Positions 2,552-61,437 of a stretch of 64,000 nucleotides of DNA are shown in pieces. The number at the start of each line of letters is the position of its first letter. Position 1 is the first letter of the stretch. Both the position numbers and the translations under genes were made by a program. Under the pieces are notes generated by a model. It worked only from the letters and a program-made list of their open reading frames with translations. It had not been told where the DNA came from and did no database searches. This stretch comes from Lytechinus variegatus (Eukaryota; Echinodermata; Echinoidea; Temnopleuroida; Toxopneustidae), in contig NC_054747.1 in assembly GCF_018143015.1 (NCBI RefSeq), forward strand, positions 30,684,733 through 30,748,732. Reading direction: 5' to 3'.

Positions 2552-2555
2552 TATA

Positions 2556-3017: not shown

Positions 3018-3021
3018 TATA

Positions 3022-3484
3022 GGTCTCACAGGCCTAATTCATTCCCCATAGACTCATGTGTTAAATTGGCACTTTAAAAAATTCATAAAAAATAAGGATG
3101 AAATTCGGGGGTCGAATGTTTACTACCAGTGGATAGGATTTATATCTGGCAATCCATATCTGACCAGAAAAGGGTCCCTCGACCGGCTCATTTTAAAAAT
3201 AAATTGGCGTGTTTGAAGACACCGTCGGGGGGAGCAGATTCATCAACTCAAACAGCAAAATAGCCCTAATCCTTCCGCCAGTCATAATATAGTCCAAAAT
3301 TGGTGATATTTCTTCCCAATTAGGGAAAAGGAAGTTCAGTAATTACCAAAAATAGAATCAGTGTTAGATGGACAATCATATGCATACACTTTGTCAATCA
3401 GCCATATCAAAATAAAAAAAATAGCAATGGGTTGGCTCGAATGAATATCTATGGCCTACCACTAGTAATTAGGCCCGTGAGACC
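3022..3484. mobile_element. MITE, tandem copy 3 of 3
   Basis: The third near-identical unit is followed by TCTG (3485-3488), which matches the bases before copy 1. This suggests that the trio sits between one target duplication. Confidence 0.85.
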
Positions 3485-3880
3485 TCTGATAATGTAGACA
3501 AACGTAGACTCTTCACTAGTCGCATTTTAGCTATTTTTCCGGAAAATGCCTTCGCCAGGGTGTAAAACGGAAACGCGCATGAGAGCTTAACCCCGTACTA
3601 TAGGTGGGGCTAAATGGCAATTTGGCCCCACCTATAGTACGGGGTTAAGGAAATTGTAGCGTGTGTAGAAAGTGTACGAGTGAAGTACTTGTACTACGAA
3701 TGATCGACAAAAACCACTAGTCCGGGCCGGGTTAGCGAGTTTCGTGTGTGAAAAGCAAGCATTCCTTATCCGGGGTTAGCAATAACAATTTGGCATGTGT
3801 GAAAAGGAAAAAAAATAGTACGGGCGGGGGTTAAGGATAGTACGGGGTTAGCGATAGTCCGGGGTTAAGAGAATCCTGTG

Positions 3881-13849: not shown

Positions 13850-14298
13850 TAAACTTTCGCCAATATGTTTTATTATTTTTCTACTATTTTTACAATAATT
13901 TTTTTGTCGGGGTGAACTTCCCCTTAGACAAATAAAAAGGGAAAGAAAAAATAGTGAAAATACCACACGTCAGTATTCTCATTTGCATATACCCTGTGAG
14001 ATGCTCATCTCTGTTTTGTGAAAATGAACAAAAATTTCGGGTTATCATAACATTCTTATTTTCAGCCCAATTCCGATTGAGTTTCAAATGTTACAGTAGG
14101 CTTTTATTATACTATTTTTGACTATTTTTTTTTCTTGGTGGATGTGATCCAACGATGCTTGTCGGACTATGCCTGTTCATCGGTCCAAGGGAAGAGCCTG
14201 TATTCTCTACGCTCTCAGTTCAATTATGTATAATCATGTATTACTTTTCTCTTTTTCGATTCGCCTCTCCCTTACAGAATTCATCTATTCAACTTGCA
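13850..14298 (+). promoter_or_regulatory. Upstream region and likely 3' splice site of the fucosyltransferase
   Basis: A pyrimidine-rich run (TTTTCTCTTTTTCG...CCTCTCCCTTACAG) ends at 14277 with a good acceptor. It lies 21 bp before the preferred ATG at 14299, so the coding exon probably starts at 14278 and the rest of the 5'-UTR lies in an upstream exon that was not identified. The reading frame stays open back to an ATG at 14155, but those residues look like intron translation. Confidence 0.55.
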
Positions 14299-24499: not shown

Positions 24500-25755
24500 A
24501 ATGGGTAATGCACTTGGGCATATCATTCACCATTAACACAAATGGCATTCAATAGGCAAACACCACTAAGCCACTATAGCTTTACAATTATCCAACATGA
24601 TTATATATACCACTAGGCACATACTACTAAGACACCATATTGATACCAATCATACCATTATAGAGGCACATACTACTGAGACACCATTGAATACCACTGA
24701 GACACCATTGTATACCACTGAGACACCATTGGGTATATAATGATATACCATGCAGTCATACCATTAGAGGCACATACTACTCAGACACCATTTGACACCA
24801 CTGAGACACCATTGGGTATAAGGTATACAATTCATCATACCAGTCATACCATCATAGAGACACATACTACTGAGACACCATTGAATACCACTGAGACACC
24901 ATTGTATACCACTAAGACACCATTGGTGCATGGTATACAATTCATTATACCAGTCATACCATTAGAGGCATACTGAGACACTATTGAATACCACTGAGAT
25001 ACCATTGTATACCACTGAGACACCATTGGATGTATGGTATACTATTCATCATACCAATCATACCATTACAAGCACATACCACTGAGACACCATTGAATAC
25101 CACTGAGACACCATTGTACCCCAGACACCATTGGGTATGGTATACCATGCAGTCATACCATTAGAGACACATACTACTGAGACACCATTGAATACCACTG
25201 AGACACCATTGTATACCACTGAGACACCATTGGTGCATGGTATACCATTCATTATACCAGTCATACCATTAGAGGCATATACTACTGAGACACTATTGAA
25301 TACCAGTGAGACACCATTGTATACCACTGAGACACCATTGGTGTATGGTATACCATTGATCATACCAATCATACTATTACAGGCACATACTACTGAGACA
25401 CCATTGAATACCACTGAGACACCATTGTATACCACTGAGACACCATTGGATGTATGGTATACTATTCATCATACCATTACAAGCACATACCACTGAGACA
25501 CCATTGAATACCACTGAGACACCATTGGGTTAATGGTATACCAATCATCATACCAATCATATCATTAGTCACATACCACTGAAACACCATTCGGTATATG
25601 GTATACCATTTACCATTAAATAAACTACCAATTACCATTAAGAACTTACCATTGAAACACCACTTAAATACCATTCGCGTACCATTTACCATTCAGATCA
25701 CCATTCAACTACCATTCGGCACCATTCAAATACCATTGGCGATTTTTATAAGGGA
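24500..25755. repeat. ACCATT-type minisatellite array 2 with ~105-bp higher-order unit
   Basis: The basic unit is about 21 bp (GAGACACCATTGAATACCACT). A higher-order unit marked by AGTCATACCATTAGAGGCAC recurs at roughly 80-110-bp spacing about nine times between 24750 and 25560. The last 150 bp switch to plain ACCATTCRCGTACCATT units like those of array 1, and the array ends TACCATTGGCGATTTTTATAAGGG. Open frames rich in Thr/Glu or Val/Ser are artefacts of the repeat. Confidence 0.85.
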
Positions 25756-36696: not shown

Positions 36697-37560
36697 TCAA
36701 TAAGAATTCAGGAGAAATTTTTTGATGAGTAATTTAAATCGTATAAGATTAGCTGCCTCTTTCATTTCTCTGTCCAGAGAATTCCAGAGTTTTGGTCCTG
36801 TGAAAAATACAGTTTTGCTAGAAAATACTGTTTTACTTTTAGGTAAGTGATAGTCATTTGATTGTCTCGTATTATATGAATGTAAAGTATTGTTTCTCAT
36901 AAATTTCTTTTGTAGGACATTAGGTAAACTATTTCTATCTAGCTGATACATAAATTGGAATAGTTGCAAGCGGTACAGGTCATTGATTTTAAGGATACGT
37001 TTCTGACGAAACAATTCATCCGTATGAGCTCTAAAGGACATATTGCATATTATTCTCAGTACTTTTTTCTGAAGTAGCAAGACTTTATTTAGTCTCGTTT
37101 GAGAGGCATTACCCCATGCCAGAATTCCATAATTAAGATATGGTAGAATTAATGCACAATACAACATGGATAGCGCCTGTGCTGGTAGAACGTATTTAAG
37201 CTTATTGATGACTCCAATATTTCTTGACACAGTTTTGCAAGTATTGTTGATATGAGCATTCCACGTAAGCTTGTTATCAATAGTAAGACCTAAAAATTTT
37301 GTTGTTTGCACTTCTTTGATTTCAGTATTATCTAAAAGTATTTGATGCGGTAGATGTTTCAATGAATGACTAAAAAGCATATAATTAGTTTTTTGCAGAT
37401 TCAGTGACAATTTGTTGGCTTTAATCCAGTTTGTTACTTTTTTAAATTCTGTATTCATAGTGCTCACAAGTACATGTGGATCATGGTGTGTATAGAAAAT
37501 ATTGGAATCAATATCAATTGATATCTTATAGTTAGACATACATTTATAACTGATTGCCAT
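36697..37560 (-). pseudogene. 5'-truncated LINE, reverse transcriptase C-terminal part
   Basis: A 287-codon open frame covers the end of a non-LTR retrotransposon ORF2. It starts around the catalytic YADD region, degraded here to IDIDSNIFYTHHDP, then reads VTNWIKANKLSLNLQKTNYM, TKFLGLTIDNKLTWNAHI, YCALILPYLNYGILAWGN, and the C-terminal TRQSNDYHLPKSKT and GPKLWNSL. This is typical of the CR1/Jockey group. Endonuclease and most of the RT are missing, so it cannot move alone, but the remaining frame is uninterrupted, which suggests a fairly recent insertion. The ATG at its start is probably accidental. Confidence 0.9.
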
Positions 37561-37564
37561 TTTT

Positions 37565-37890
37565 TCACTCGATTTTCTATTGTGCCAGAATTATTTCATT
37601 GGTCATTGTTTTTATCAGCGAATAAATTATACAATTATAAGTATTAAAATTAATTACTGTTCCCTTTTAATAATTTAAAATATTTTGGTTGATTAATATT
37701 ACCATTTAAGTAACAATATTTTTTTTTATTTATGTTACTAAGTATTGTTATCTTTGATTTAGATTTTGGCTTTATTTTCATGTATGATGTGATGATTTAT
37801 TTTATTCTTTGTTTTCATCGGGTCATTGATGAAAAACAGTTTTATACTGATCTTTTGTACCTGATTAAATATGTTCTAATAAATAAATAA
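37565..37890 (+). mobile_element. Probable retroposon 3' tail in opposite orientation
   Basis: AT-rich sequence ends TTTTGTACCTGATTAAATAT, then GTTCTAATAAATAAATAAG, which looks like the 3' end of a LINE on the plus strand. It abuts the truncated minus-strand LINE. Confidence 0.35.
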
Positions 37891-43044: not shown

Positions 43045-43290
43045 AGAATTATTTTGAAAGATCGACTTCAAGAGATTTGCAGAGGAAATATTTTTACAGA
43101 TTGACTTCAAGAGATTTTGCAAAGGAATTATTTTGAAAGATTGACTTCAAGAGAATTGCAAAGGACTTATTTTGACAGATTGACTTCAAGCGAATCGCAA
43201 AGGGAGTATTTTGAAAGATTGACTTCAAGAGATTTGCAAAGGGAGTATTTTGAAAGATTGACTCGAAGAGATTTGCAGAGGAATACGGTT
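43045..43290 (+). repeat. 39-bp coding-like minisatellite, ~6 units
   Basis: The unit TATTTTGAAAGATTGACTTC, then AAGAGATTTGCAAAGGGAG, repeats about every 39-42 bp. In one frame it encodes a 13-residue repeat YFERLTSRDLQRE over about four units within an open frame at 43117-43338. Earlier units are out of this frame because of a one-base difference. The protein, if any, is not recognised. Confidence 0.8.
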
Positions 43291-45600: not shown

Positions 45601-48600
45601 CTGCAGGATTGAATACAATGGGGGGAAATTAGTTCATGAGATTAGAAAAAATAAATAAAATTAAGAAAGTTAATACAATAGTAATAACAATAGAGCATCG
45701 GGTATAGGAGTAAATAAAGCAACTCTTCATAATATTCTTGCAATCTTATAAATATCTGATAAATATATAGAAATATAATTTTGATCAACATCACTTTAAA
45801 AATTTAACTAGATCATGGTCTAACCCTGTGCGGAAGGTATAGGTAGCTGAAAAATGTCAACATTTTGTAAATATACACTGAATTTTTTTCTAATGTTTAC
45901 TATGTTGTTTCCTCATGCTCTAATGATAAACAAGTGGAATGCCTCTGGCCGTCTCACCTGCATCACGCGGTTCAATATAGTAGCAGTGCTGACTTTGAAT
46001 ACTACTCTAACTCGCACTTAGATGTTCAGTGATACATAGTTACTCTTGTGTCCACTTTTTTATGAACTAGACCAAAAAACTTACAGAGATATGATGGTTA
46101 TTCAACAAAAAACCCCAACATGGCCAAAGTTCATTGACCTTACATGACCTTTGACCTTGATCATGTGACCTGAAACTCGAACAGAATGTTCAGTGATACT
46201 TGATTACTCTTATGTACAAGTTTCATGAATCAGATCCATAAACTTTCAAAGTTAGGATGGTAATTCAACAGATACACCCAATTCGGCCAAAGTTCATTGA
46301 CCTTTGACCTTGGTATGTGACCTGAAACGCGCACAGGATGTTCAGTGATACTTGATTACTCTAATGTCCAAGTTTAATGAACTAGACCAATAAACTTTCA
46401 AAGTTATGATGGTAATTCAACAGATACCCCCGATTCGGCCAAAGTTCATTGACCCTAAATGACCTTTGACCTTAATCATGAGACCTGAAACTTGCACAAA
46501 ATGTTCAGTGATGCTTGATTACTATTATGTCCAAGTTTCATGAATCAGATCTATAAACTTTCAAAGTTATGATGGGAATTCAACAGATATCCCCAATTCG
46601 GCCAAAGTTCATTGACCCTAAATGACCTTTGACCTTGGTCATGTGACGTGAAACTCATGCAAGATGTTCAGTGATACTTGATTAACCTTATGTCCAAGTT
46701 TCATGAACTAGGTCCATATATTTTCTAAGTTATGATGACATTTCAAAAACTTAACCTCAGGTTAAGATTTCGATGTTGATTCCTCCAACATGGTCTAAGT
46801 TCATTGACCCTAAATGACCTTTGACCTTGGTCATGTGACATGAAACTCTAATAGGATGTTCAGTAATACTTGATTAACCTTATGGCCAAGTTTTATTAAC
46901 TAGGTCCATATACTTTCTAAGTTATGACGTCATTTCAAAAACTTAACCTCAGGTTAAGATTTGATGTTGACGCCGCCGCCACCGCCGCCGTCGCCGCCGC
47001 CGTCGGAAAAGCGGCGCCTATAGTCTCACTTTGCTTCGCAGGTGAGACAAAAAATGACAATTATGACAGATTTGAGAGTAAACTGAGCTAATGAACTGAG
47101 CTGTTAAAGATTTGTGTTACAACTGGCTTTCCATAGTAAATCTACATCTTCAGACCAGACTTTGAATTGAACTATTTAAAAGTACAATGCACCGACCAAA
47201 ATGTCAAAATAACCCTCTTCAGTTGCAGAAGTACCAATGCAAACTGCCTTTGGACGAAATAGGCTGGCAAGTGTAAATCTGTTGCATAAAACTTTTTACC
47301 TGAGAAAACTCTGGTAAAAACTGAAAACTACGGTTCGTCTGATTTCTACCATTGACTTTAACACAGGGCAAAAACTCTGGTAAAAATAACCTGAGTTTTC
47401 TCAGATAAAAAGTTTTATGCAACAGGCCCCACGGGGTAGAAAAAGAAAATTCTATGACCTTTGACCTATTTTGGCCCATGACCTTTTCTGTGACCTCCTT
47501 ACCTTTCATCGTCATACTTGTACCACTGGTCATCTTCAGGATGTCTGCAGTACGCTATGTAGTGACCCCCTGCAGTCCCCCCATAATGATTGCACACGGC
47601 CTGTAGGTGGTAACGGGAACACGGATCGGCTGGAGAAGAATATAAATAAAAATAATGATGATGATATGGAACATTTATATAGTGCTTAATACAATAGCCC
47701 GTATTCTGATGTCGGGTTTAACTTAGACCATGGTCTAACTCTGTGCTAAAATTATGGGAAGCCAAATGTGTCAACAAATTTTATTAAGCTGTATGTTTCT
47801 TTACTGTGCTCTTTCCTGATTCATCCATGGCGAAGACACTCATCTATTTATACTTCCTTGACAATTATGAATGATCTGAGAGCCAAATGAGCTGAAATAT
47901 GATATCTCTACTGTTATTGATTTATGTAATAATTGGTAATCCGTAATTAAACCACAACTTTGAGCCTGACTTTAAGTTACACCCAACTTCAGAATACGGG
48001 CCTATGTTTCTAAGTGCTCCATACTCTTACTCCGACTTTAGGGCCCGTATTCTGAAGTCAGGTTTAATTTAAACTCTGGTTTAAAGTTGTGGTTTAACTA
48101 TGGAAAGCCAGTGTAATAAATCTATAATGGTAGAGGTTCAATGTTTTAGCTCATTTGACTCCCAAAACATTATTAACTGCCTGGGAAGGACAAGTATGAC
48201 AATTGTCTTCACCATGAAATAATTAGTAAAGAGCACAGTAAACATGAGAAGCATTCACTGTAAACAAAATTTTGAAACATTTGGATTCCCATAATTTTAG
48301 CACAGAGTTAGACCATGGTCTAAGTTAAACCAGACTTCAGAATACGGGCCTATCAAGGCAGCCCTGATCAGGTGCACGAGCATTCAAGGAATTCCTTCCC
48401 ACCAAGAATCCATTTACCACACCTTGAAGTGTTTCATTAAGATTTAAGTGCAACTTAAAGCCATGCTTAGTGCCGACGCGTGCAAGATTTTGTAACGCAC
48501 AATCTTATTAATACGCAGTAGTGTCCTCTTAACATAATTTGACCAAAGCAGTTATGCCTTTTATTTGGCCAGCAGGTTGACATTTATTCCGTTGGACACT

Positions 48601-51600
48601 GAGCATGCATATATCCGTGCTGAGGTCTATGGAAAGCATGTGTTATACCAAAATTATACAGTCTCCAAAGGGTTAAATGTGACTTTGAGTCATAGTTAAC
48701 CTTACATAGACTGGGCTATTTCGACGCCTTAGAAGACGGGAGGTAGGGGGGGGGTGATTCACAAAGAGTTTATACCAACAGGTAATTTTTAATTTCTTAC
48801 CGTCTTGTGATAGGTTATTGCTGAGATCAAGACCCCGAAGTGGTGCATCTACATGAGTGTCTACCTTCCGTGTCAGTCCGGTGTGTGACGATGAAAACCT
48901 CTTTAATTCTATCATGAAAGATAAAATAATCATATAAATAATAGCTGGATATGTATGAGCGCTTTTTGATAGCGCTGCTATCATTACCCCGACTTTAGCT
49001 GTGCTGCCATATAGGCACTGAAGCCCACCAGGTACCCATTCACCTCACCTGGGATGAGTGCAGCACAATGAGGGTAAATTTCTCGCTGAAGAAAAACACA
49101 CCACGGCTGGGAATCAAACCCACGTCCCCCAGATTGAAAGATGTATTTCATTACAACTAGACCATTACGCCCCCTACTATTACAACATAATGGTAATAGT
49201 AGTTACATTTATAAAGCATATTGTTTCAAAACGCTTTACATTGCCATTATCATCACCCCGGTCATAGGATCTTAGTATGCCCCCACAAAATGTATGCACT
49301 TTCTCCACTTCATGGGGACTATTCCAATGAGATTTCCAAGAATCAGTTGCAACGCATACTACACAGGCTTTTGCATCCTACTGGGTACCCATTTTACAAC
49401 TGGGTGGAGAGTGGCAGTGTGAACCGACGCCTTGCCAAAGGATGCTATGCCGCAGTAGGATTTGAACACACAACTCTCAAGATGAGAGTCAAACCCACTA
49501 CACCACAACACTGCCATGAAATATACATGTAAAAACAACAACAAAATACTGTGAGCTGAACTTTTCTGGTGATGTCATTTTTGCTAAACTTGCTCGATCA
49601 ACATTGCCCAATCTTCTGTATATATATATGAATAACTGATATGCTCAATGAATTAGATGGATCAATAGAAATCTGGCCTAAATTGAACAGAATAAAACCA
49701 CCTTTGGTATAAAGGCCAAATTGCAAGCCACACAATGTTAGCACAGATTTCTTTTATGAAGTTCATTTCAATCAAATATATTCAGAATATTTGATATGCT
49801 TGATTCTTAACATGTAAAACAATGTTGGCAGTGATTCTTTGATAAAATATATATGTATAGCAGACACTCAAATCTGTTGTAATTCATAATTTTGTCCATC
49901 GATTGGGTAAATCAATGAGGCCTTTTCAATCAAAGAATTCACAATAATAGAATTCTCATAAGACAGAACAAAGCTAAAGTAAATTTAGGAGCAAAAGTAC
50001 TTACGGATGATAAGAACTTTAGGGCATCTCTCTATCTCCATCTTCTTGGTACCCGATCGTAACGTCTTGCACTTTTCACATCGCTGAAGAACATGAAACA
50101 AAACAAAATAAGATATTTTAGTCAGGATAAAATGAGTGAATGCCAACTTTCTTTAATATCAACACTGTCGAAAAGAACGAAAGGACTTCTAGGAAGTACA
50201 GAGCCATTATATCAATGGCTCTGAGTGATCCATCCGCATATTTTCAAGTGCATGTTTATATATTTATATTTAATCTCAGATCTTGTGCAATGTATTTTGT
50301 TGAGATATTTAAAACCAAATAAAACCAAACCAAACCAAAAAGTCTTCCATCTTCATACATGTATACACAGTGGCCTGCATTCTGAGCTTGGCTTTGAGCT
50401 ATGGATAGCCAATTGTAACAGAAATCTATAACAGAACAGGATTGATTTTATAGCAAGTCATCTGTTACTCAGATCATTCATTACTGTCTAAGGGGGTGTT
50501 GCAAGAAAACATTTGCAATCGATTGCAAATATTCTGTTGCAAGTTTACAATTCATAGATCATTTTTAACTGTAGCAAATCAGATTACACTCCTTATTAGA
50601 AGATGCAGACTTGCAATTAATCACAAATATGCAATTAATTACAAAATATATGAAAGATTAAGAGACAATAAATGGACATGCAATTGATTGCCAGTTTCTT
50701 GCAATGCCCCATAAGAATAACAACTGAATTAGCTTTCTTCACTATTATAACATGATGAAAGAGCAGGGTGGACATATATGAAAAAAATATGATGAAAATA
50801 AACTTTTGACATTTTCAACTTCGCATAAGTTAATCAGAGTTAGACCATGGTCTATAAAGTTAAAACTGACCCCAGAATACAAGCCAATAACAGATTAAGG
50901 TGACATCTGACAAAGCGAGTTGGTTAAATTCATCCATATCAAAATCATTGATGGAGCTACTAATGCAATCATACTAACAATATTTTTAGGTCAGACTTGA
51001 GTGGTCTCAGCTTAAGATCAACGGAATAAAACCCCATATAAAAAGAATTGGCTTCAAAGGTCTTATGGATAGATTCCTCATAAAATGCAAACGAGAATAC
51101 CATCTTTTCACCCCTGAAATGTAAAAATTAGCCCTTGAATATGAGGTAGGGAAAAGAAGATATAAAAGATAACACTTACGAATTTGTTTTCTCCTGTTAA
51201 TGTTTCTGGTTTGGTATACAGCTCTAAGGCATCAGCTAGGGAACTACACCCCTGTTAGGGAAAGGGAATATAAAACAAACGATGAATGTCAAATAAGTGA
51301 GTAATGATTCAAACACAAGGGGAAAAAAATCCTGGGCAAGGGGTTCTTACAGCTGTTCATAAATTTTGCATATGGGCAAGTCCAAGAATTCGCGCGCGTT
51401 ACGTATGGGACATTTCAGAGGCTTCAATGACCTGAAAAATAGTGTTAATTGACTTTGATTAGATTGAATACCCTCATGATGGTAGACATCTAGGAGAAGA
51501 ATAATCATGGAAAAAATGGTGGCATATGACCTCGACCTTGACCTTTTATAGAGAAAAGATGGGCCGTTACGTATGGGACGCAGAAAAAAGACAATTTTTA

Positions 51601-54600
51601 AAACAATTTTTACAAGTTGAGAATTCTCTGAAAGTATTTTATTTGACAACTTGTAACTCAGTGTGATAGAAGTCACAATACTCTAGTATATCTAAGGCAA
51701 GTTTCATGTCATAAGCCAAATCCCTCTAATTACAGACTCTAATTAAACAAATTAATGACATGTTACGTATGGGACAGTTACGTATGGGACATTTTGTCCC
51801 CATAGAGAATGTACACAATTTCCCCCATAATTAAGAAAATTGAAATAATTTAAAATATGGAAATAACAAAAGAGTTTCTGTCTTTTAAAATGTTCTATTG
51901 AGACATATTTGATATGACTGACAAGGAAATTAGCCATTTCCACATTTTTTTTTCGTGTTTTTCATGGTTTCATGAATTTCTTATGTATTTCTATTGTTTT
52001 TTATTTTATTCATATTTTTCCATTTTCACAATTTTTTCGCTTCAATTGTTTTCATTAATCAGTATTCATAACAAATCAGTCTTTAAAAACTAAAGAAAAG
52101 GTAAATAATCACTTTTTAGAGCACTCTTGAAATTTGTTTTTCTCCATTCACTTTGTACACAAATCTCCCCATTGACATTGTGTGTAAATGTCCCATACGT
52201 AACATGTTGTCCCATACGTAACAATTATTTAATTAACTTTTAATTAAAAAGTAAACTCCATTTTTGAAACTTTTTGGGGTATAACATTTTCATACTTTAT
52301 AAATTAGAACTTCCCAGAGATGCAACAATACAAGTATTGTATTATGAGAAATAACTTAAAAAAACATCCTCAAAATGTTACGTATGGGACATTCCGCCCT
52401 TGGACAAGACCTAATTTGCATAATTAATTAGATGACATCACTTCTTTTCCCCCAAAAGTAATAAGATGTTAGGGGGTCCATGTCCCACCCATGACTAAAT
52501 CTCACAAGTTTTGTTTTTATTTTCTATGAGTTTTTATAATTGTCCCATACGTAACGCCCATTTTACCAATTATGCAAATTAGGTGCCCCAAATTAGCATA
52601 AATATGCATATTATCAAATTTTTCTTAATGAAATTTTAAATTTCAACATATGGGCTTTCTTACCCCACCAAAGATAACTTCTTAAATTAAAGATGAAATT
52701 TTGCCTTCTAGGGTGACCTTTTCTTGGACTTGCCCATATACATGTAGACCAATGGACCATGTTCGTAGGTGGCACTGGTCATTCCATCAGGGACCCATTG
52801 CATGAATTAAAAGTTACTAATTATAGTAACTTTGCAATAGTTCTACCATGTTAACAATGATCAACAGCCAATCAAAATCAAGGATTCCATGCAAGTTACC
52901 ATTAGATGGCAAAGTTACCACCATGGTAATTTTGTTGTGGCCCCCCCCCTAAAAATTTTGGTTGATAACCTCTTTTTTTTTACCTATGTCCATCCCAAAA
53001 TTTCTGGTGGATCCCCCCTTAAATTTGTTGGCTTCCGCTGCCAATGGGCAAATAACTTCTGATTACTTCAGCAATATTTGGTGTCCCACTATGGTTTACT
53101 ATTTAAACATCATGAGGAATTGCAATTTCAGACCTGGCAGTCTACGGCCAGTTATACATTACGTGATGTCCAACATTGTTAAAAAAATTAATTTGAACAG
53201 ATCCAGAAAATATTTCAAGATCAAACATGAATTTCACATTGACACATCAAAACTTAGCGATATCTGCAATGAAATTCACTGTGAAATAGAATAGTTGATA
53301 CCTATGTAACATTGACATCCTGTAATTTTTTACACAACCTGGGGGATGTTTCATAAAGCTGTTCGTAAGTTAAAAGCGACTTTAAGAATAATAATAATAA
53401 TAGCCAATTTTTATAAAGCGCTTTTCCCAGAATGGCCCAAAGCGCGTTACAGCATATTATTACCCTAGTCATTGGATTCATTTCAATCAAGCACAAAAAG
53501 TGCACAATTTCCACTCCCTGGGGAGCATTCCTTGCATTCATCGCAGCCACATTATGGCGCTGGCAAAATCAAACATACAATATCTTTCGCATCCTACCGG
53601 GTACCCATTTAGCACCTGGGTCTCGAGTGGCAAAGTGTGGATTAACGCCTTGCCAAAGGACGCTTGACCGCAGTGGGATTCGAACACACGACCCTCTGTT
53701 TACAAGGCGGGATTCAGAACCACTACATCACGGCTCTTCCACAGAATGACTGGTGAACCTTTCTTAAGCGCTTAAGCAAATCGTCAGATCACCAGTCATT
53801 CTTAAAGTCATTCTTAACTTACAAACAGCTTTATGAAACACCCACCTGGGTTCCATTTCAGAAAGACTTATTACAATAACAAATACCAAATTTCTATAAC
53901 AAATGTACAATCAACCAATCAGATTGAAATTTAAATGGCTTTAAACTGTTATTGCAAATTGGTTATTATAACAAGTTTTATGAAACAGGGCCCCAGATGA
54001 AATAGCCCAGAGCAGATTCTCAATCATTTTAATTTCATCTGTCAAAGTTGAAACTGAAAATGAATCGTCATCGCTGGGGAGTTAAAAATTCTATCACAAA
54101 GATGTGATGGTGGTGATTAAAGCAAAGCCAATCGCTTGACTTACCGTAGGAATAGGCACTGAGAGGTCGTAGAAGAGTTCAAAGGTCACTGAGACGTAGT
54201 CACATGTGGAGCATCTTAGTGTGCTGCGTGTTAGGCCATTGAAGAGGTCAAATATGATGGACTGGGTCAGCTGTTGCTGGCGCCGCCACATGAGATTGGC
54301 AAGATCAACGGGGCTGAAGTATGGACGGAAAGAAAATCGGTTTAATGTTAAAGGGGAATGAAACCTTTGGAACAATAGGCTTGTGTAGAAACAGAAAAAT
54401 CAAAGAATAAGAATAAAGAAAGTTTGAGAAAAATCGGACAAATGAGAAAGTTATGAGCATTTGAATATTGCAATCACTAATGCTATGCAGATCCTCCCAT
54501 TGGCAATGCGACAAGGATGTGTGATGTCACTGATGAACAACTTTCCCTTTGGTGGACTATGAAATACCCTCAAAATGTCTCTTTTTGCTTTTTCTTATGA

Positions 54601-57600
54601 TGATACAAACTCTTTATCCATGATGTATTCTTAAAAAATATGTACTACATGCCCTCATGTAGAAAGAACACATGATCTAGGGATAGATGCGATAAAAGAG
54701 GCAATTCAAGTGAAATATATACTAAAGTAATGGGGAGAGCTGTTCACAAGTGACATCACACATCTTTGTCGCATTGCCAATTTGCTATCTCCATAGCAAT
54801 AGTGATCGCAATATTCATATGCTCATAACTTTCTCATTATTTGTCCGATTTTCTCAAACTTTTGTTGATCTGTTTCTTTGATTTTTCTGTTTTCACACAA
54901 GCTATCTTGTTCCAATGGTTTCATTCTCCTTCAAGGCATTCGGTGCATTCAAGGAATTGATACTGTCGGGTACTTGTTCACTTCACCTGGATTGAGTGCA
55001 GCACAGTGTGGAAAAAAATTTCTTGTCGAACGAAATTATGCCATGGCTGAGATTCGAACCCACGACCCTCTGTTTCAAAGTCAAGAGACTAATCCACTGG
55101 GCCACAACACTCCACATGATGAGATTGTATCGTAAAAGAAATTGTCTTCAAAGAATTTTATTATGGTGCACTCGGCCTGAATCTGTCATACAGGAACATC
55201 AGAAACTGCACAATACCATTCGTTTCTGATACTTTCCCCCATAATGCAAGCTAAGACATTCCATCTCAGGGTAAGAACCTTCAGTGTTCCCTTTTATTTT
55301 GGCTTTATGACAATATCGACATTCAAATATTTATACATGAATGAAACTTTAAATTGGAATTGCGATTGGCATGTTGGACTTGTAACCTGCTACCCCAAAA
55401 CCAACATTATGTCACACAATGATATTCTGCATTTTTATGGACCTTGAAAGGCACACCCTAAGCTTTAAGATAACATATAATTTGGTTAACTGATCAACAT
55501 ATACCTCTAGGCAGCATTTCATTATGCGTTCTAATGTGTCATGTCTTTGTCTATACTTACTTGAGGTTCTCTGGCATAGCACCCAGCCTGGGGGGATTCT
55601 TGACTCTGTTAACATCTTCACTCAACTCAGCAAGAAGACTCAATAAAAACTCTGCAGCATCATGTTGCCTACATAAACAAGAAAAAAACGCAGTTAATAA
55701 GCCGTCGACTACTGAATAACTTTAGCAATATCCAACTCAATAAGACTTGAAGGGGCTCCACTCGCCTGTTTTTGTGATAAATCTTGCCGCGCAAATTTTT
55801 TTGACGTCACTCGCTGACCTTGTACTTTCCAGTCTCACGTGTCTTTTGAGACCAAAATTGTGCCCCCTGGAAACACGGTTCATAAATTACGCAACATTTT
55901 GTAACTGCATGCAGACAAAGAAATATATAAGAAATTTAAAGAACAATAAAATACATAAGAAAATAATAGTAAAGTTGAAATATTTTTAAAGTACATTTGA
56001 TCAGATTCCTATTGTCTGTAAATAAAAAATTAGCATTTTTGGAGCATGATTTTGTTAGTTACGATTTTATGCATAATTTTGCATAATTAATTAGCAATGA
56101 GAATTTTCACAAATTTCAAACTTATGGTTTTGTAGATTATGCCTTTGGTAACGCACGTGCCAATTTGTGTCGCGTCGAAATAGCCCAGTCTATTAATAGG
56201 GGTTAATAATACTAATTCTGCCCATTCTTAACTGTAGCAACATTAATCTCTCATCATTGAAGAGAGACAATAATCTCATAATGTAAATTATCTTACTATG
56301 CTGATCTGAGCTTAGTACAAAAAAGCTGAAACTGAACTAAAAGTACCAAACACAAATATCCCTGAAGATTGCAAATCATGAAATCTACAGTGTTCTTTTT
56401 GTTTGACGTTCGGTTTTAATGTATTCCTGATAGGCTGATAAAATATTGTTAAGCTGCACTTGGCCATTAGAATCTAGGAACATGGTACGAACCTGTAGCC
56501 ACGAAACTCATGACTGAGCATGTTGCCAATTTGACGCTTGAGGTTGTGCGGCGTCAAGGAGCTGACGGTAGAGTCGGGGTCCCAGAGTTTCTTGAGAGTC
56601 TCGGCAAACTCTGTATCAAAGAGCATCAGAAGGATCACATCAATACATCAATTTCTATGCTAATGGCAGTACTTCATTTATAGATGTAGGCCAACAATAT
56701 TTTAAGACTGCAGTTGGGTGTTAAGCAATGCTGTTGGCAGTTGGTATTTAAGACTTTCACTTAATAGTAGAGGGTAAATAATAAATAAAGTAAATAATAA
56801 ATGCAAATATTTATTTACATGTAACAGGGCTCGACACTAGCGGCGGTCCGACGGTCCAAGACCGGTAAAAATCGCTGTCCGGCCAGTAGATTTTCAGAAA
56901 TTGGAAGATTTACTGGTCCGACATGACCAGTAAAAAATATCATTGTCGGGCCAGTAATTTTTCCAAAAATAGCAAGATTTAAGGGTCCGGCATGACCAGT
57001 AATAAAAACCATTGTTGGCCAATAACTTTTCCAGAAATGGTCAAATTCACAGCAAACCATTTCCCCCCGTTAAATTTTGCCATCCACACACAGAATACAC
57101 ACAGAATGAATCGCACGTAATGTATATTACAGCATGCATACAGTGCAGTGTACATGTAGTTAGCCACACAACTCACATGGTAAATTCTCCACTGCCCGCA
57201 CGAACGAAGCCTGGCTAATAAACTCTGGCAGAAATCTCTCACAGAGCTGTCAAAATTCAAGGTTCATACTCATGAAAGGCTCTTATAATGTCCATATTTC
57301 CTAAAAATTGTAGCAACTCTGTCATTTCTGAGCAGTAAAAGGAGAAATTTTCACTTCTGTTTTGGTTCCAATAGATCGGGTTTCGGGTGATATCGTCTGA
57401 ATACATAATAGCCCCACATATGCATTTATGTGTGTGTTGATACACTTGGTATCTGTCTTTATTTCGTAGCTATTTTAATTGAGCCAAAAAGAAACTGATA
57501 AATTATTTATGATAATAGTTTTAGCTTTCTTCCTATCTTTCTTTCCTTCTTAATCTTTCTTTGTTTCTTCCCTCGATTTTTTTTGTTACTGTCTTTTCTT

Positions 57601-60600
57601 TTAATTTCCCTTTTTTCTTTAATTCATTTTTTCTTTCTATCCTTTTATAAAATATTTTCTATATTTTCTTTTTCTCCCTCTTTCTTTCTGACATTTTCTT
57701 TCTTTAGTTTTTGAGTCCATCCATCCTATCTTCATCTCTTCTTCCTTTCTTTCCTTCCTTCTTTTTACCCCTTTCTTCATTCTTTGTTTCTTTCTTCCAT
57801 CCATCATTTTATTTACCCTTTCTTTTTTTATTTCTTTTCTCAGCCCTTTCTTTATTACATTCATTCCTTCCTTCTGTCTTCTTTCCTTTTTCCCTTTCTT
57901 AATTATATCCTTTTACCTTCCTTTCTTTTTTTTGACTGCTTGCTTCCTTTATTCTTTCATTCCTTCCTTTCTTTGTCTCTCGGTCTTTCTTTTTTTTTAT
58001 GATTGCTTGCTTCTTTCTTTCCTTCCTTTATTTATTTCTTTCCTTCTATCTATCATTTTACCTTTCCGTCATTTCTTCCTTAATTCCTTCCTTCCTTCGT
58101 TCAATCCTTCCTTTCTTTCTTTATTTCTTTCTTTTGTCTGTCTTTCCATCTCTCCTTTTACCCTTTCTTTTTTATTGCTTCTTCTTTCTTTAATTCCTTT
58201 ACTACTTTCTGGATTTGTTATTTCTTTCTGTATTGCTTGCTTCATTTCCTTCCTTCATTTCTTTCTTTCTTTCAGTCTTTCTTATATTTGTTCCTTCTTT
58301 ATTCCTTCCTTTCCTTTAGTTCTATTTTTTTCTTCCTTCACATCTATCCTTTCTTTACCTTTTTTTCTTCCTTTCTTTTATTCTTTCTTTTCCTTCCTTC
58401 CTTTCTTTCTTTCTTTCTTCGTTTCTGTCTTTCTTCGTTTCGGTCTTGCTTTCTTTTTGTCCTTCATTTCCTTCATTTTTTTTTTTTGGGGGGGGTAACG
58501 AAAGGCTAGAAAAATAAACTTGCGCCTTTTCTTAATGTTTTCTTTGTTTTGGGGGACCAGTAGATTTTAGGTTCGGACCAGTAAAAATTTGAAAAACTGG
58601 GTATCTACTGGTCCGACATGAATAGGTTGGACCAGTAGAAAAAATGTGTTAGTGTGGAGCCCTGCATGTAATCAGAGGCCCTAAAAATGTACCCTGGGGA
58701 ACCCCATGATTTCGCTAAGTAGAGGTATAAATACGAATAACACTTGATCAGGGGCCCATTTACAGAAAGGAATGTTTTTGATCACAACTCAAAAACAATT
58801 AGACATAAAAAAACAAGCGGATGTAATTGGTTAAAAACAAGTCGAAGAAATTAGTTTTGTGTTGATAGGGAAGCCAGTTGGAATTGATCAAGGGGGCCTG
58901 AAAATCACCAAGGATACAATATTTTGTACACAAAAATGCTAAAACTATGGCCTGAAAATAAATTGCCAGAGCCTGAATTCAGGCTTTTGCCTGAAAACTG
59001 GCATCCCTGCATTGATACTGAATATCAACTTAAATGCAGACTGAATAATGTCATATTTTCTTTCTTATTCTCATAACTCCTGGAAACATTTCATGAAGTG
59101 TCTTATCAGTGATTTCCATCTGAAAATTTGCTTTTAGCCAATCAGGTGCAAGAATTTCAGTAGCTTACAACATCTGTTTATGGAAATCACTGATGAATTG
59201 TTTCATGAAAGGCCCCCCCCCCCTTTACCTTGAAAGAGTTTGCCAGAGTGGTAGCTATTGCTGTTAACATGATCGTTGTGCATGAAGTTATCCATCTGAA
59301 GGCAATACTTGGACAACTCCGGAATGGAAGACAGACACTGGATAATGGTGTTCATATAACACTGCAAGAAATACACAAAGACAAACACTGGATAATGGTG
59401 TTCATATAACACTGCAATAAATACATAAGACAAGGGGTATAAGGTGTTTACATAACACTGCAAAAACAAACAAAGACAGGGCACTGGGTAATAGAGGTCA
59501 TATAACACTGCAAGAAATACACGAAGACAGAGACTGCAAAATGGTGATCATATAATACTGAAAGAAAAACACAAGTTTGAATTATTGTGTATATAAATAA
59601 GAAAGAATTACACAAAACAGACACTGGATAATGGTGTTCATATAACACCGAAAGAAATACATAAGACAAACACTGGAAATGGTGTACATATAACACTAAA
59701 AGAAATGCACAAGTATAATAGTGTTCCTATTAGTAAGAAATACACAAAACAGACAATGGATAATGGTGTTTATGCATATATCTGACAGACATTCACAAGA
59801 AGGACACTGGATCATATTGTTCAGATAACACCAAAAGAAATACACAAGAAAGACACTGGACAAAGGTGTTCAAGTAACACAAAGAAATACAAAAATTGTT
59901 AAAAATGCAATGGAGCCCGAACTAACTTAATGAGAGCAGGCCAAAAAATGACAAAAATTATAATTTTGACTTGCCACATGTGACCTACATCAAATGTGCT
60001 TACTTTATAACATACATTTAAATGAAGATATTATCATAATAAGAACCTTGCAGAAAAACCACAACTAAGAATTTGAGATTCAGTTTTTAATATCATCTTA
60101 CCGTGTTTCCTATGTTTTTCAGCCCTCTTTTTCCTGCTCCTTTGATCGTGGAAAGACCGTACTGTTCATGAAGAAAAAAATAATTGAAACTAAAACTAGG
60201 TAAAATTACATTAGTTAATCATATCAGGATCGCACCTGTCTGTTTACCTAAAACAGGCACATGTACATTTTACACATTTTTTCAATATGAACTCGTAGAA
60301 CAGTGTGTTGAATTCTGATTAAACGGAGGTCATGGTCTCTGTTCTAAAATTGGAGCAAGCAAAAATGCCACACTTGTTTACAATAAATTTTATTTACAAT
60401 TTACTGTGCACCTTCCTCATGCTTAGGTTGTGAAGAAATACTTGGTATTATTCCTAGACAGTTGTAAATGATTTTAACATCAAATTAAATGATAAACTGA
60501 GCCTGTACATTTCAAGGTGTGTAGCACCAACGGCTGTCTATTGGTAAATAACAAGGTCAGAGTTTAAATAAAATCGGAGTTCAGAAATCGGAATACAGGA

Positions 60601-61365
60601 ACTATTCTTTTAATTCGATAATCTTACCTCTCCAGCTGTCGATCTTGAAGAATAATCACCTAGACTTGATCTCCTATTTGATAATTTCACAATACTTGGA
60701 GTTCTTTTGAGGGTTGAATAGCTTGACCCCCTATTGGTCAGTGAAGGTCGGTATGTTTTTTCTGTCCTACTGTAGCTATCCTTGACCTCTTCCGTGTTAT
60801 TCGCAGATGAAGTCCTGCTCTCGGAGCTATCCCGTGGACGTGGTGCGTTCAAGTCCTCGATGGAAGATTTATAAAGGTTATCAGGCACGCTGCCAAAATT
60901 TGAACTCTTATACGTCCTGGACGGGGAATCGTCCATAAGAGGCAGCTTCAGTAGGTCCCGAGATAGCGAAGACACGCTCGGGCTACGCTGCTCTTGTCGG
61001 AGCGACCTCGAGGCGTATTTAGTACTGTAGGTGGTGATATTTGAGGAGTCGGCACCGTATTTATTTGGCTCGTACGTGGCGGTGATGGGGTTGGTGGAGG
61101 TTCGACTGGTGATGCTGGTCCGATGAGGGCGGTAGGCATCGCGGCTGGTGCTGGATGGCGAGCCGTAGCTGCTCGAATACAAGCTGGCCGGCTTGCTGTA
61201 CGAGGATGTGTCGAGGGCATGTTGGGTGGCGCGTGGTGCGATGCGTCGCCGAATGGAAGAGCTGCCTGTACTCTGGTAGCTAGCTGGGGGGCGGGGTATC
61301 ATGCTGGTTCTTGTTGTAGAGTGCCCATGGTAGGTCACTGGGGAGGGGCGCACACGTACAGGCAT
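45507..61365 (-). CDS. USP2: Ubiquitin-specific protease, USP2/USP21-like (11 exons)
   Basis: Coding exons, in gene order: 61365-60628, 60161-60102, 59361-59229, 56610-56493, 55668-55561, 54313-54145, 51251-51180, 50083-50005, 48908-48801, 47629-47503, 45600-45507. All introns are GT-AG and the phases agree, giving 601 residues; human USP2 is about the same length. Residues 1-246 are a disordered Ser/Thr/Arg-rich arm. The peptidase C19 domain follows: Cys box GLKNIGNTCYMNTIIQCL with Cys267, QHDAAEFLLSLL at 351-362, zinc cysteines in CSTC (420/423) and CEKC (468/471), His box GGHYIAYC with His551, and WYKYDDE with Asp568 in place of the Asn/Asp third residue. It should remove ubiquitin from proteins; all catalytic parts are present. 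Assignment to USP2 rather than USP21 rests on length and general layout and is less certain than the family. Confidence 0.93.
45931..47049 (-). repeat. Composite satellite-bearing repeat, copy 3, in USP intron 10
   Basis: This runs from ACAAGTGGAATGCC and CCGTCTCACCTGC to GGCGCCTATAGTCTCAC and GCAGGTGAGAC. It has about six units of 150-190 bp marked by GATGTTCAGTGATACTTGAT. It carries five perfect TGACCTTTGACCT sites. It is inserted in a copy of MITE family C: the halves of that MITE lie at about 45805-45930 and 47085-47178. Confidence 0.85.
47279..47425. mobile_element. Short MITE in USP intron 10
   Basis: CTGTTGCATAAAACTTTTTA is inverted at the right as TAAAAAGTTTTATGCAACAG. The arms extend through CTGAGAAAACTCTGGTAAAA. 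Confidence 0.85.
47503..47629 (-). CDS. USP2: USP exon 10 (catalytic His/Asp)
   Basis: Acceptor TTCTCCAG|CCGA, donor GAAAG|GTAAGG. Encodes DPCSRYHLQAVCNHYGGTAG, then GHYIAYCRHPEDDQWYKYDD, with His551 and Asp568. Confidence 0.95.
47696..48002. mobile_element. MITE family C, copy 2
   Basis: GCCCGTATTCTGATGTCGGG to CAACTTCAGAATACGGGCC. The same orientation as 33254-33560, with the same internal landmarks. Confidence 0.85.
48041..48350. mobile_element. MITE family C, copy 3 (opposite orientation)
   Basis: GGGCCCGTATTCTGAAGTCA to GACTTCAGAATACGGGCC. The interior is in reverse order relative to copy 2 (ACTCTGGTTTAAAGTTGTGG first). Confidence 0.85.
48423..48695. mobile_element. MITE family D, interrupted copy (USP intron 9)
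   Basis: GAAGTGTTTCATTAAGATTT, ACGCACAATCTTATT and AGTTATGCCTTTTAT match the order of 39926-40137. About 100 bp of unrelated sequence (48558-48668) separates the right end. Confidence 0.6.
48801..48908 (-). CDS. USP2: USP exon 9
   Basis: Acceptor ATGATAG|AATT, donor GACG|GTAAGA. Encodes LKRFSSSHTGLTRKVDTHVD, then APLRGLDLSNNLSQD; LKRF is the conserved USP strand motif. Confidence 0.93.
48918..49174 (-). mobile_element. tRNA-derived SINE (USP intron 8)
   Basis: ACCCCGACTTTAGCTGTGCT, GGTACCCATTCACCTCACCT and a diverged box B (GGGAATCAAACCCACG) lie in the family order, read on the minus strand. Confidence 0.8.
49177..49514 (-). mobile_element. Second SINE type, head to tail with the first
   Basis: TTTATAAAGCATATTGTTTC to CACTACACCACAACACTGCC, with GGGTACCCATTTTACAACTG, CGACGCCTTGCCAAAGGATG and a diverged box B (AGGATTTGAACACACAAC). 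The same subfamily as 53387-53740. Confidence 0.8.
49515..50004. other. USP intron 8 remainder; nothing seen
   Basis: AT-rich intron sequence without recognised features. Confidence 0.6.
50005..50083 (-). CDS. USP2: USP exon 8
   Basis: Acceptor TTCTTCAG|CGAT, donor ATCC|GTAAGT. Encodes RCEKCKTLRSGTKKMEIERC, then PKVLII: second CxxC pair of the zinc site and the start of the core strand leading into LKRF. Confidence 0.93.
50371..50886. mobile_element. MITE family C, copy 4, split by another MITE (USP intron 7)
   Basis: Left half 50371-50491 (GGCCTGCATTCTGAGCTTGG, AGCTATGGATAGCCAATTGT). Right half 50711-50886 ends AGTTAGACCATGG...CCCCAGAATACAAGCC. A MITE of the 23857 family fills the gap. Confidence 0.7.
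50492..50710. mobile_element. MITE, GGGGGTGTTGCAAGAAA ends, nested
   Basis: GGGGGTGTTGCAAGAAAAC is inverted at CAGTTTCTTGCAATGCCCC. TTGCAATCGATTGCAAAT-like motifs lie inside. The same family as 23857-24070. Confidence 0.75.
51180..51251 (-). CDS. USP2: USP exon 7
   Basis: Acceptor CCTAACAG|GGGT, donor ATTC|GTAAGT. Encodes 24 residues, GCSSLADALELYTKPETLTG ENKF, the segment between the two zinc cysteine pairs. Confidence 0.92.
51371..52738. mobile_element. TIR element with eight GTTACGTATGGGAC motifs (USP intron 6)
   Basis: Perfect 18-bp terminal repeats TATGGGCAAGTCCAAGAA (51371-51388) and its complement (52721-52738), with TA likely duplicated at the ends. Inside, the 14-mer GTTACGTATGGGAC occurs at 51398, 51566, 51762, 51777 and 52377 and its complement at 52190, 52209 and 52542. 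There is no long open frame. A non-autonomous DNA transposon of unknown superfamily. Confidence 0.75.
52790..52943. mobile_element. Short MITE (USP intron 6)
   Basis: GGGACCCATTGCATGAATTA at the left and TAATTTTGTTGTGGCCCCC at the right form weak inverted ends. The interior AGCCAATCAAAATCAAGGAT and AGTTACTAATTATAGTAACT are shared in kind with 43873-44005. Confidence 0.6.
53341..53847. mobile_element. MITE split by a SINE (USP intron 6)
   Basis: The left arm 53341-53386 (GGGGGATGTTTCATAAAGCT, GTTCGTAAGTTAAAAGCGAC) is inverted at 53800-53847 (GTCATTCTTAACTTACAAAC, AGCTTTATGAAACACCCACC). The SINE at 53387-53740 lies between the left arm and the rest. Confidence 0.8.
53387..53740 (-). mobile_element. 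SINE inserted in a MITE
   Basis: ATAATAATAATAGCCAATTT and TATAAAGCGCTTTTCCCAGA form the tail end. ACCGGGTACCCATTTAGCAC and box B complement GGGATTCGAACACACG mark the head. It carries GCCTTGCCAAAGGACGCTTG like 49177-49514. Confidence 0.85.
53848..53994. mobile_element. Short MITE next to the previous one
   Basis: CCTGGGTTCCATTTCAGAAA is inverted at TTTTATGAAACAGGGCCCCAG. TTATTACAATAAC and GTTATTATAACAAG lie just inside. Confidence 0.7.
54145..54313 (-). CDS. USP2: USP exon 6
   Basis: Acceptor TACTTCAG|CCCC, donor TACG|GTAAGT. Encodes PVDLANLMWRRQQQLTQSII, FDLFNGLTRSTLRCSTCDYV, then SVTFELFYDLSVPIPT. It carries the first CxxC zinc pair. Confidence 0.95.
54348..54934. mobile_element. TTAA MITE family E (USP intron 5)
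   Basis: TTAAAGGGGAATGAAACC to GGTTTCATTCTCCTTCAA. The inverted arms include AAAGTTTGAGAAAAATCGGA and GATGTGTGATGTCAC, each with an inverse copy. It starts only 35 bp into the intron. Confidence 0.8.
54935..55112 (-). mobile_element. tRNA-derived SINE, truncated (USP intron 5)
   Basis: TCGGGTACTTGTTCACTTCA, TTGAGTGCAGCACAGTGTGG and box B complement GAGATTCGAACCCACG, ending CACTGGGCCACAACACTCC. Confidence 0.85.
55561..55668 (-). CDS. USP2: USP exon 5
   Basis: Acceptor TTTATGTAG|GCAA, donor TCAA|GTAAGT. Encodes QHDAAEFLLSLLAELSEDVN, then RVKNPPRLGAMPENL; QHDAAEFL is the QQDAQEFL box. Confidence 0.95.
55669..56492. other. USP intron 4; shared 22-bp end
   Basis: No gene. GCGTCGAAATAGCCCAGTCT (56172-56193 with its last two bases AT) is an exact inverse of 48706-48727 in intron 9, and may be one end of an unrecognised repeat. 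Confidence 0.5.
56493..56610 (-). CDS. USP2: USP exon 4
   Basis: Acceptor TTTGATACAG|AGTT, donor TACAG|GTTCGT. Encodes FAETLKKLWDPDSTVSSLTP, then HNLKRQIGNMLSHEFRGY. Confidence 0.93.
56825..58664. mobile_element. hAT-like non-autonomous element (USP intron 3)
   Basis: CAGGGCTCGACACTAGCGG at the left and GTGTTAGTGTGGAGCCCTG at the right are hAT-style ends. CATGTAA is repeated on both sides (56818-56824 and 58665-58671), close to the 8-bp duplication typical of hAT. ACTGGTCCGACATGACCAGT and shorter ACCAGTA motifs are repeated near both ends, as transposase-binding subterminal repeats usually are. There is no transposase frame; the core is replaced by a 1-kb CTTT/CCTT tract. Confidence 0.8.
57510..58490. 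repeat. 1-kb CTTT/CCTT pyrimidine tract
   Basis: An imperfect tetranucleotide-rich pyrimidine tract lies inside the hAT-like element. It is purine-rich on the transcribed sense strand of the USP gene. Long Phe/Ser/Leu-rich open frames are artefacts. Confidence 0.95.
58751..58900. mobile_element. Possible short MITE (USP intron 3)
   Basis: CAGGGGCCCATTTACAGAAA at the left and GAATTGATCAAGGGGGCCTG at the right are loosely inverted. AAAAACAATTAGACAT and AACAAGTCG lie inside. Weak. Confidence 0.4.
59086..59215. mobile_element. Short MITE, AACATTTCATGAAGTGTC ends (USP intron 3)
   Basis: AACATTTCATGAAGTG is inverted at ATTGTTTCATGAAAGGCCCC. ATCAGTGATTTCCAT and its inverse lie inside. The core CAATCAGGTGCAAGAATTTC matches 29413-29520. 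It ends 14 bp from exon 3. Confidence 0.75.
59229..59361 (-). CDS. USP2: USP exon 3 (catalytic Cys)
   Basis: Acceptor TTTCTTGCAG|TGTT, donor CAAG|GTAAAG. Encodes CYMNTIIQCLSSIPELSKYC, then LQMDNFMHNDHVNSNSYHSG and KLFQ. The first codon is the catalytic Cys267. The acceptor and first codons are repeated many times in the upstream intron. Confidence 0.95.
59341..59900. repeat. ~50-bp tandem array derived from the exon 3 acceptor
   Basis: The plus-strand unit GATAATGGTGTTCATATAAC, ACTGCAAGAAATACACAAAG, ACAAACACTG is 50 bp (59341-59390). It repeats about ten times up to about 59900, with units near 59341, 59391, 59437, 59487, 59538, 59626, 59675, 59758, 59810 and 59858. On the gene's strand each unit reads as pyrimidine tract, CAG and TGTTATATGAACACCATT, i.e. 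the acceptor and the codons CYMNTI. Distal units are diverged. Confidence 0.9.
60102..60161 (-). CDS. USP2: USP exon 2
   Basis: Acceptor CATGAACAG|TACG, donor CACG|GTAAGA. Encodes exactly 20 residues, YGLSTIKGAGKRGLKNIGNT, the lead-in to the Cys box. Confidence 0.92.
60304..60600. mobile_element. MITE family C, diverged copy (USP intron 1)
   Basis: GTTGAATTCTGATTAAACGG, GTCATGGTCTCTGTTCTAAA and GAGTTCAGAAATCGGAATAC keep the order of the family landmarks. Confidence 0.6.
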
Positions 61366-61437
61366 GGTTTCATTCTCAAGCTATACATCGGGGTAGCGAG
61401 TGGGATCTGAATTGCACTTGACCCAATGGGAGAACTC
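60628..61437 (-). CDS. USP2: USP exon 1 of the coding part (start codon, disordered arm)
   Basis: Acceptor CTACTCTAG|GAGT gives 72 nt of 5'-UTR (61437-61366), then ATG at 61365 in a good context (AAACCATGC) and 246 codons to donor GAGAG|GTAAGA. The protein part is rich in Ser, Thr, Arg and Tyr (MPVRVRPSPVTYHGHSTTRT...), with SLSRDLLKLP and TLKRTPSIVKLSNRR. A short out-of-frame ATG lies 7 nt upstream of the start. At least one noncoding exon must lie farther up. Confidence 0.85.

What the first reader, a model, noticed from the sequence alone, without database searches (positions are those of the whole stretch)
59341..59900. Splice acceptor and first codons of the catalytic-Cys exon expanded as a tandem array in the upstream intron
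The sequence shows about ten copies of a ~50-bp unit. The copy nearest the exon is the exon's own 5' end: pyrimidine tract, CAG, then the codons for CYMNTI. Several upstream units keep TTGCAG followed by TGTTATATGA, so several candidate acceptors with the same downstream codons stand in a row. This could allow competing acceptors or lariat decoys, or insert extra residues next to the catalytic cysteine. A tandem expansion that started at an exon boundary of an enzyme active site is unusual. A functional effect is inference.
Basis: partly seen in the sequence, partly recalled or inferred. Interest (0 to 1): 0.75.

Follow-up and report, generated by a model that had tools for sequence, protein, structure and literature searches.

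The report
Repeated splice acceptor before enzyme exon
In an animal gene for a ubiquitin-cutting enzyme, the start of the exon that carries the active-site cysteine has been copied head to tail into the intron before it, an accident already described in lancelet genes; it leaves several look-alike splice sites, one of which could add 32 amino acids at the active site.

Summary
On the minus strand, 59891-59328 holds 12 head-to-tail units of about 50 nt. Each is the last 16 nt of an intron plus the first 34 nt of the next exon, beginning with its TGT (Cys) codon; the last unit is the exon itself. The gene is a USP2/USP8-like ubiquitin protease. The copied coding sequence is conserved in USP proteins, so copies spread from exon to intron. 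The exon copy is the centre of the unit family, and intronic copies have decayed about equally at the three codon positions. Six of 11 intronic units keep AG at the junction. Read on without further splicing, five of these give stops; 59457 adds 96 nt, in frame and open (32 residues before the Cys). The genuine acceptor has no adenine between -12 and -27, so its branch point probably lies in exon-derived sequence. The kind is known: amphioxus 'mirages', minisatellite-like duplications of exon-intron boundaries, reported not to disturb regular splicing. I judge it a new example of that kind, most likely a decaying passenger array with mostly normal splicing. Transcripts, related species and the species itself could not be tested.

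The parts
59892..59905 (-). TTTTTAACAATTTT directly left of the array: probable ancestral branch-point region of exon 3 (branch A at 59899, about 20 nt before the first, now AG-less, junction)
   Evidence: sequence and coordinate; motif score with recalled weights; function inferred
59328..59891 (-). whole array, 12 units of about 50 nt (16 nt intron end + 34 nt exon start)
59847..59891 (-). u1, junction AG lost
59797..59846 (-). u2, junction TGG
59746..59796 (-). u3, AG kept, acceptor 59781, extension in frame but stops
59712..59745 (-). u4, truncated, junction lost; score equals the shuffle maximum
59663..59711 (-). u5, TTTTAG kept, acceptor 59695, leads to stop
59614..59662 (-). u6, junction CGG; 33 of 34 exon positions kept
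59574..59613 (-). u7, most decayed, below shuffle maximum, placed by register
59524..59573 (-). u8, TTTCAG kept, acceptor 59557, leads to stop
59473..59523 (-). u9, TTGCAG kept, acceptor 59507, leads to stop
59427..59472 (-). u10, TTGCAG kept, acceptor 59457: 96 nt extension, in frame and open (32 residues)
59378..59426 (-). u11, TTGCAG kept, acceptor 59411, leads to stop; its exon-derived part holds the likely branch A of the real acceptor (59393 or 59401)
   Evidence: branch point inferred
59328..59377 (-). u12, exon copy: genuine acceptor TTGCAG and first 34 nt of exon 3
59229..59361 (-). exon 3 (133 nt), begins with the catalytic Cys codon TGT, CYMNTIIQCLSS
   Evidence: splice consensus and gapless USP alignment over the junction
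60102..60161 (-). exon 2 (60 nt), ends GNT, donor ACG|gtaaga
47503..61380 (-). USP2/USP8-like gene model, 10 exons in the window, 5' and 3' ends left open: 61380-60628, 60161-60102, 59361-59229, 56610-56493, 55668-55561, 54313-54145, 51251-51180, 50083-50005, 48908-48801, 47629-47503
   Evidence: no transcript support

Best explanation
It is a mirage-type minisatellite. A 50-nt stretch spanning the acceptor of exon 3 (16 nt intron, 34 nt exon) was duplicated in tandem and amplified into the upstream intron; the copies then decayed as neutral intron sequence. Shown: anatomy, direction exon to intron, no sign of coding constraint in the copies. Inferred: splicing still mostly joins exon 2 to 59361, because only that junction gives an intact USP. 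The true acceptor was cut off from its old branch point (TTTTTAAC at the far left end of the array). It now works with a pyrimidine tract and branch adenosine made partly from duplicated coding sequence. Upstream acceptors are leaky at most; most products would carry a stop, and 59457 would give a +32-residue, probably inactive, enzyme.
For: Unit = 16 nt intron + 34 nt exon, 12 units. Exon copy equals the intronic majority at 49 of 50 columns and has the highest mean identity to the other units, 0.82. Copies match the exon about equally in the intron part (135/164) and at codon positions 1, 2, 3 (103/122, 93/113, 91/112) (gaps left out). The exon's protein segment is conserved without gap in the two USP8 and one USP2 chains shown, which fixes the direction; Pfam UCH 8.6e-64. 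Only 1 of 18 exon boundaries tested in this gene is amplified. The real acceptor has no A from -12 to -27 before the next AG, whereas the 8 other acceptors tested have 3-8 A at -18 to -45. Same anatomy with regular splicing reported in amphioxus (passages of PMC3087553, and PMC3902484).
Against: By recalled weights the tract scores of 59457 (8.3) and 59507 (6.8) are like that of 59361 (7.4), and all six upstream junction acceptors have a better-scoring branch motif (2.8-4.8) than 59361 (2.2); u11, u8 and u5 have adenines in the usual place where 59361 has none. So exclusive use of 59361 is not predicted by site strength. No transcript was seen. Identity to the exon shows no gradient along the array (Spearman 0.28, p 0.40). 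The branch-point argument rests on human rules and an unmapped site.
Confidence: 0.77

Rival explanations
1. Regulated alternative acceptor: 59457 is used in some tissues, giving a USP with 32 extra residues (starting CYVNT) between GNT and CYMNT, a dead or dominant-negative isoform; use of other units gives stop-bearing mRNA and lowers enzyme level.
For: 59457 extension is 96 nt, in frame and open, with the highest score of the 15 AGs listed from the array, exon acceptor included (8.3, recalled weights), and a better branch motif than 59361 (3.3 against 2.2). Repeats at exon-intron boundaries can give alternative transcripts in human paralogs (passages of PMC2812944).
Against: 31% of 96-nt stretches of the array are open, so one open in-frame case among six AG-keeping units is about what chance gives. 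Copies show no coding constraint. The insert would interrupt the Cys box.
Confidence: 0.1
2. Ordinary minisatellite, its likeness to the exon being incidental or the exon having been overwritten by a repeat from elsewhere.
For: The window has many unrelated tandem arrays (67 TRF rows, overlapping rows included).
Against: The exon segment is the conserved USP Cys box, aligned gaplessly to USP8 and USP2; the exon copy is the hub of the family; the first 24 exon nt were found nowhere in the window outside the array at up to 3 mismatches.
Confidence: 0.05
3. Assembly or collapsed-allele artefact that multiplied one boundary.
For: Tandem arrays are often misassembled (general knowledge).
Against: Intronic units differ from the exon copy at 6 to 42% of aligned letters and several carry indels of their own, not expected of duplicated reads.
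Confidence: 0.03

Closest known systems
Amphioxus 'mirages' (Adh3, globin BflGb6 and BflGb9, troponin C, PGBD5)
   Same: Minisatellite-like tandem copies of an intron-exon boundary, some keeping splice signals. In BflGb6 the copied part is likewise the 3' end of an intron plus the 5' part of the next exon; Adh3 repeat units are 10-72 bp (passages read).
   Different: Gene is a ubiquitin protease and the copied part holds the catalytic Cys codon; intronic units here are 58-94% identical to the exon copy, against 81-100% among BflGb6 units. The species is not identified, so it may or may not be a lancelet. The RT-PCR reported there is missing here.
IFI6/G1P3 (6-16) minisatellite giving multiple splice donors
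   Same: Minisatellite that repeats a splice site in a transcript.
   Different: Donor, not acceptor. Known to me only from the title in a reference list and recall; not read.
Human internal tandem repeats at exon-intron boundaries
   Same: Minisatellites of on average 30-bp units, some at exon-intron boundaries and with alternative transcripts (passages of PMC2812944).
   Different: Those are recent, variable repeats in segmental duplications, linked there to the formation of new introns.
Polyubiquitin UBC array of dual-specific splice sites
   Same: Tandem array in which each repeat carries a usable splice site (abstract).
   Different: There the repeat is coding and the AGGT motif serves as donor and acceptor; here the junction reads AG|TG and the array has no donor as good as the weakest real one of the gene.

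Membership tests
Mirage (exon-intron boundary minisatellite) | tandem units that span an exon-intron boundary, the genuine boundary being one unit | tested here: met
   12 units, last one is the acceptor and first 34 nt of exon 3
Mirage (exon-intron boundary minisatellite) | many but not all repeats keep the splice signal | tested here: met
   AG kept at the junction in 6 of 11 intronic units
Mirage (exon-intron boundary minisatellite) | regular mRNA splicing is not disturbed | not testable with these tools
   no transcripts; only the intact-USP argument
Mirage (exon-intron boundary minisatellite) | length instability between alleles | not testable with these tools
   one haplotype only; own genome not held
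Mirage (exon-intron boundary minisatellite) | found in cephalochordates (the cases named in the two papers whose passages I saw) | not tested
   species not identified; no eukaryote genome collection held
USP ubiquitin protease (peptidase C19) | UCH domain with Cys box and downstream His box | tested here: met
   Pfam UCH 216 bits, cut-off 23.9; aligned to USP8 and USP2 chains through GLKNIGNTCYMN and GGHYIAYC
USP ubiquitin protease (peptidase C19) | assignment to USP2 rather than USP8 or USP15 | tested here: inconclusive
   best chains USP8 232.1 bits, USP2 230.9, USP15 229.5
Dual-specific (AGGT) or recursive splice site | AG|GT at the junction, usable as donor | tested here: not met
   junction reads AG|TG in exon copy; best donor in the array -0.6 against 0.5-7.3 for the 10 real donors, recalled weights

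The most novel reading that the evidence does not exclude
The array rebuilt the acceptor of the catalytic exon from the exon's own coding sequence: the branch adenosine of the real junction lies in a duplicated Cys-box copy, and the neighbouring acceptor at 59457 is really used to make a second, in-frame enzyme form with a duplicated CY-NT motif and a broken active site.
Probability: 0.08. Interest if true: 0.65.

Novelty: new member of a known kind. Interest (0 to 1): 0.42.

Why it matters
It is a clean natural case of an exon boundary being copied into its own intron, with the direction fixed by protein conservation and seven AG-bearing copies of one acceptor side by side (six intronic and the genuine one). 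It makes questions testable: how the spliceosome picks the right one among look-alike acceptors, whether coding sequence can take over as branch point and pyrimidine tract, and whether such arrays are raw material for new introns or isoforms. If the species is not a lancelet, it would extend the mirage phenomenon beyond the cephalochordate cases I saw in print.

Tried and rejected
Whole-genome search: no genome held for this window. Exact patterns of 30 and 26 nt from the unit in genome contigs and viral contigs: 0 matches. Relatives of the USP protein there: 24 and 4 stretches matched a pattern, none confirmed by tblastn. Species identification through five repeat words in papers: 0 papers; tRNA and Rfam scans of the window gave nothing. 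Two first gene models had shifted exon ends and broken frames; corrected. The idea that copies grow younger toward the exon was tested and not supported as a gradient; only position -4 separates u9-u12 (G) from u2, u3, u5-u8 (T; u4 has A, u1 a gap), which hints at a later local round of copying. Selection against decoy AGs: 6 of 11 units keep AG, too few units to test. Unit use as a cassette exon: no donor in the array as good as the weakest real one. Upstream remnants of the array left of 59891: one hit at 60063-60034 with score 10, within the shuffle range, rejected. Splice-site, donor and branch-point weights were recalled human-like values, not taken from a call.

Full report
What is there. 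On the minus strand a gene for a USP-type ubiquitin protease runs through the end of the window. Ten exons can be joined without a frame break; the first and last ends are left open. The joined catalytic part matches Pfam UCH (8.6e-64) and, best, solved chains of USP8 (232.1 bits), USP2 (230.9) and USP15 (229.5) (60 of 106 matches listed). Exon 2 ends ...GLKNIGNT and exon 3 starts at 59361 with the Cys codon, CYMNTIIQCLSS. In the three alignments shown (two USP8 chains, one USP2) no gap falls at this junction. No transcript supports the model; it rests on splice consensus and protein likeness.

The array. 59891-59328 holds 12 units of about 50 nt. The rightmost unit is the genuine boundary: TGTGTATTTCTTGCAG of the intron and 34 nt of exon 3. 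The likeness stops at exon nt 34. So about two thirds of a full unit is copied coding sequence. Nine of 11 intronic units exceed the largest of 300 shuffles (18); u4 equals it and u7 falls below, and both are placed by register. I tested 18 exon boundaries of this gene (9 acceptors, 9 donors) against up to 1.5 kb of neighbouring intron. Only this one is repeated (score 44, largest shuffle 16); none of the other 17 exceeds its own largest of 60 shuffles.

Direction and decay. The exon segment is the conserved Cys box of USP enzymes, so it is not derived from an intron repeat. The exon copy equals the intronic majority at 49 of 50 positions and has the highest mean identity to all units (0.82; next u6, 0.79). 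That is a star with the exon at its centre. The exception is position -4: G in u9-u12, T in six of the more distal units. Copies match the exon about equally in the intron part (135 of 164 letters) and at the three codon positions (103/122, 93/113, 91/112) (gaps left out). So the intronic copies show no coding constraint. There is no significant gradient of identity along the array (Spearman 0.28, p 0.40).

What splicing could make of it. Six of 11 intronic units keep AG at the copied junction: 59781, 59695, 59557, 59507, 59457 and 59411. I read every AG of the array on from exon 2 without further splicing. Of 14 AGs upstream of the exon, 13 run into a stop, five of the six junction AGs among them. 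59457 is 96 nt upstream, in frame and open, and would insert CYVNTLYPLSYVFIAVLYEHHYPVFVFVYFLQ before CYMNT. As 31% of 96-nt stretches of the array are open, one such case is unremarkable. By recalled human-like weights the genuine acceptor scores 7.4, 59457 8.3 and 59507 6.8. All six upstream junction acceptors have a better branch motif (2.8-4.8) than the genuine one (2.2). Strength alone therefore does not single out the true site, which counts against my assumption of near-normal splicing. No possible donor in the array (best -0.6) reaches the weakest real donor (0.5), which speaks against units as cassette exons.

A displaced branch point. Directly left of the array stands TTTTTAAC (A at 59899), about 20 nt before the first unit's junction, whose AG is lost. 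This looks like the old branch point of exon 3. The genuine acceptor now has only one A (-11) before the next upstream AG at -27, whereas the eight other acceptors of the gene tested have 3 to 8 adenines at -18 to -45 within their AG-free zones. Their best branch motifs score 4.2-5.3, that of 59361 2.2. The scanning rule as given in PMC1431707 (passages) lets AGs within 12-15 nt of the branch point be bypassed. Under that rule the branch A should lie just upstream of the CCAG, at 59393 or about 59400, inside the exon-derived part of u11. This is inference from human rules.

Precedent. The same anatomy is described in amphioxus as 'mirages': minisatellite-like duplications of exon-intron boundaries in Adh3 and globin genes. 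There RT-PCR of globins and the Adh3 data suggest that regular splicing is not disturbed, although many repeats keep splice signals, and the clusters vary in length (passages of PMC3087553). PGBD5 and troponin C are added in PMC3902484 (one passage). The original Adh paper is not held. Among the listings (nine papers; 12 listed of 268) I noticed no 'mirage' case outside lancelets; apart from the papers named here I saw only titles and abstract starts, so this is a limited search. Repeats at exon-intron boundaries also occur in human duplicated genes (PMC2812944 passages).

Limits. The species is unknown. The genome is not held, bacterial and viral collections gave no relative, and a search of papers for repeat sequences found none. 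From memory the dispersed repeats and the 36% GC look like a sea urchin or another deuterostome rather than a lancelet; no call supports this.

Verdict. A real and unusual structure with a known precedent. Most likely it is a decaying by-product of tandem duplication, with mostly normal splicing and a partly rebuilt acceptor. A used +32-residue isoform is possible but has no positive evidence beyond site scores.

Noticed in passing
2089-3485: Three copies of a 466-bp unit at 99% matches: a very young tandem triplication or an assembly effect.
   Followed up: no
14122-15666 (+): Single 515-aa open frame (stop to stop) matching glycosyltransferase family 10 (fucosyltransferase), Pfam 1.6e-48.
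   Followed up: partly
43046-43284: Array of 6.1 copies of a 39-bp unit (a multiple of three), 86% matches.
   Followed up: no
24774-25527: Nested array: 21-bp units within 108-bp and 307-bp higher-order units.
   Followed up: no
36700-37590 (-): 297-aa open frame that from memory resembles the end of a retrotransposon reverse transcriptase; no Pfam match at 1e-3.
   Followed up: partly
59213-59223: Run of 11 G (minus strand) directly after the donor of exon 3 (AAG|gtaaa), visible.
   Followed up: no
59712-59745: The decayed unit u4 carries TTACTAAT, a good branch-point-like motif, 35-39 nt before the u5 acceptor at 59695.
   Followed up: partly
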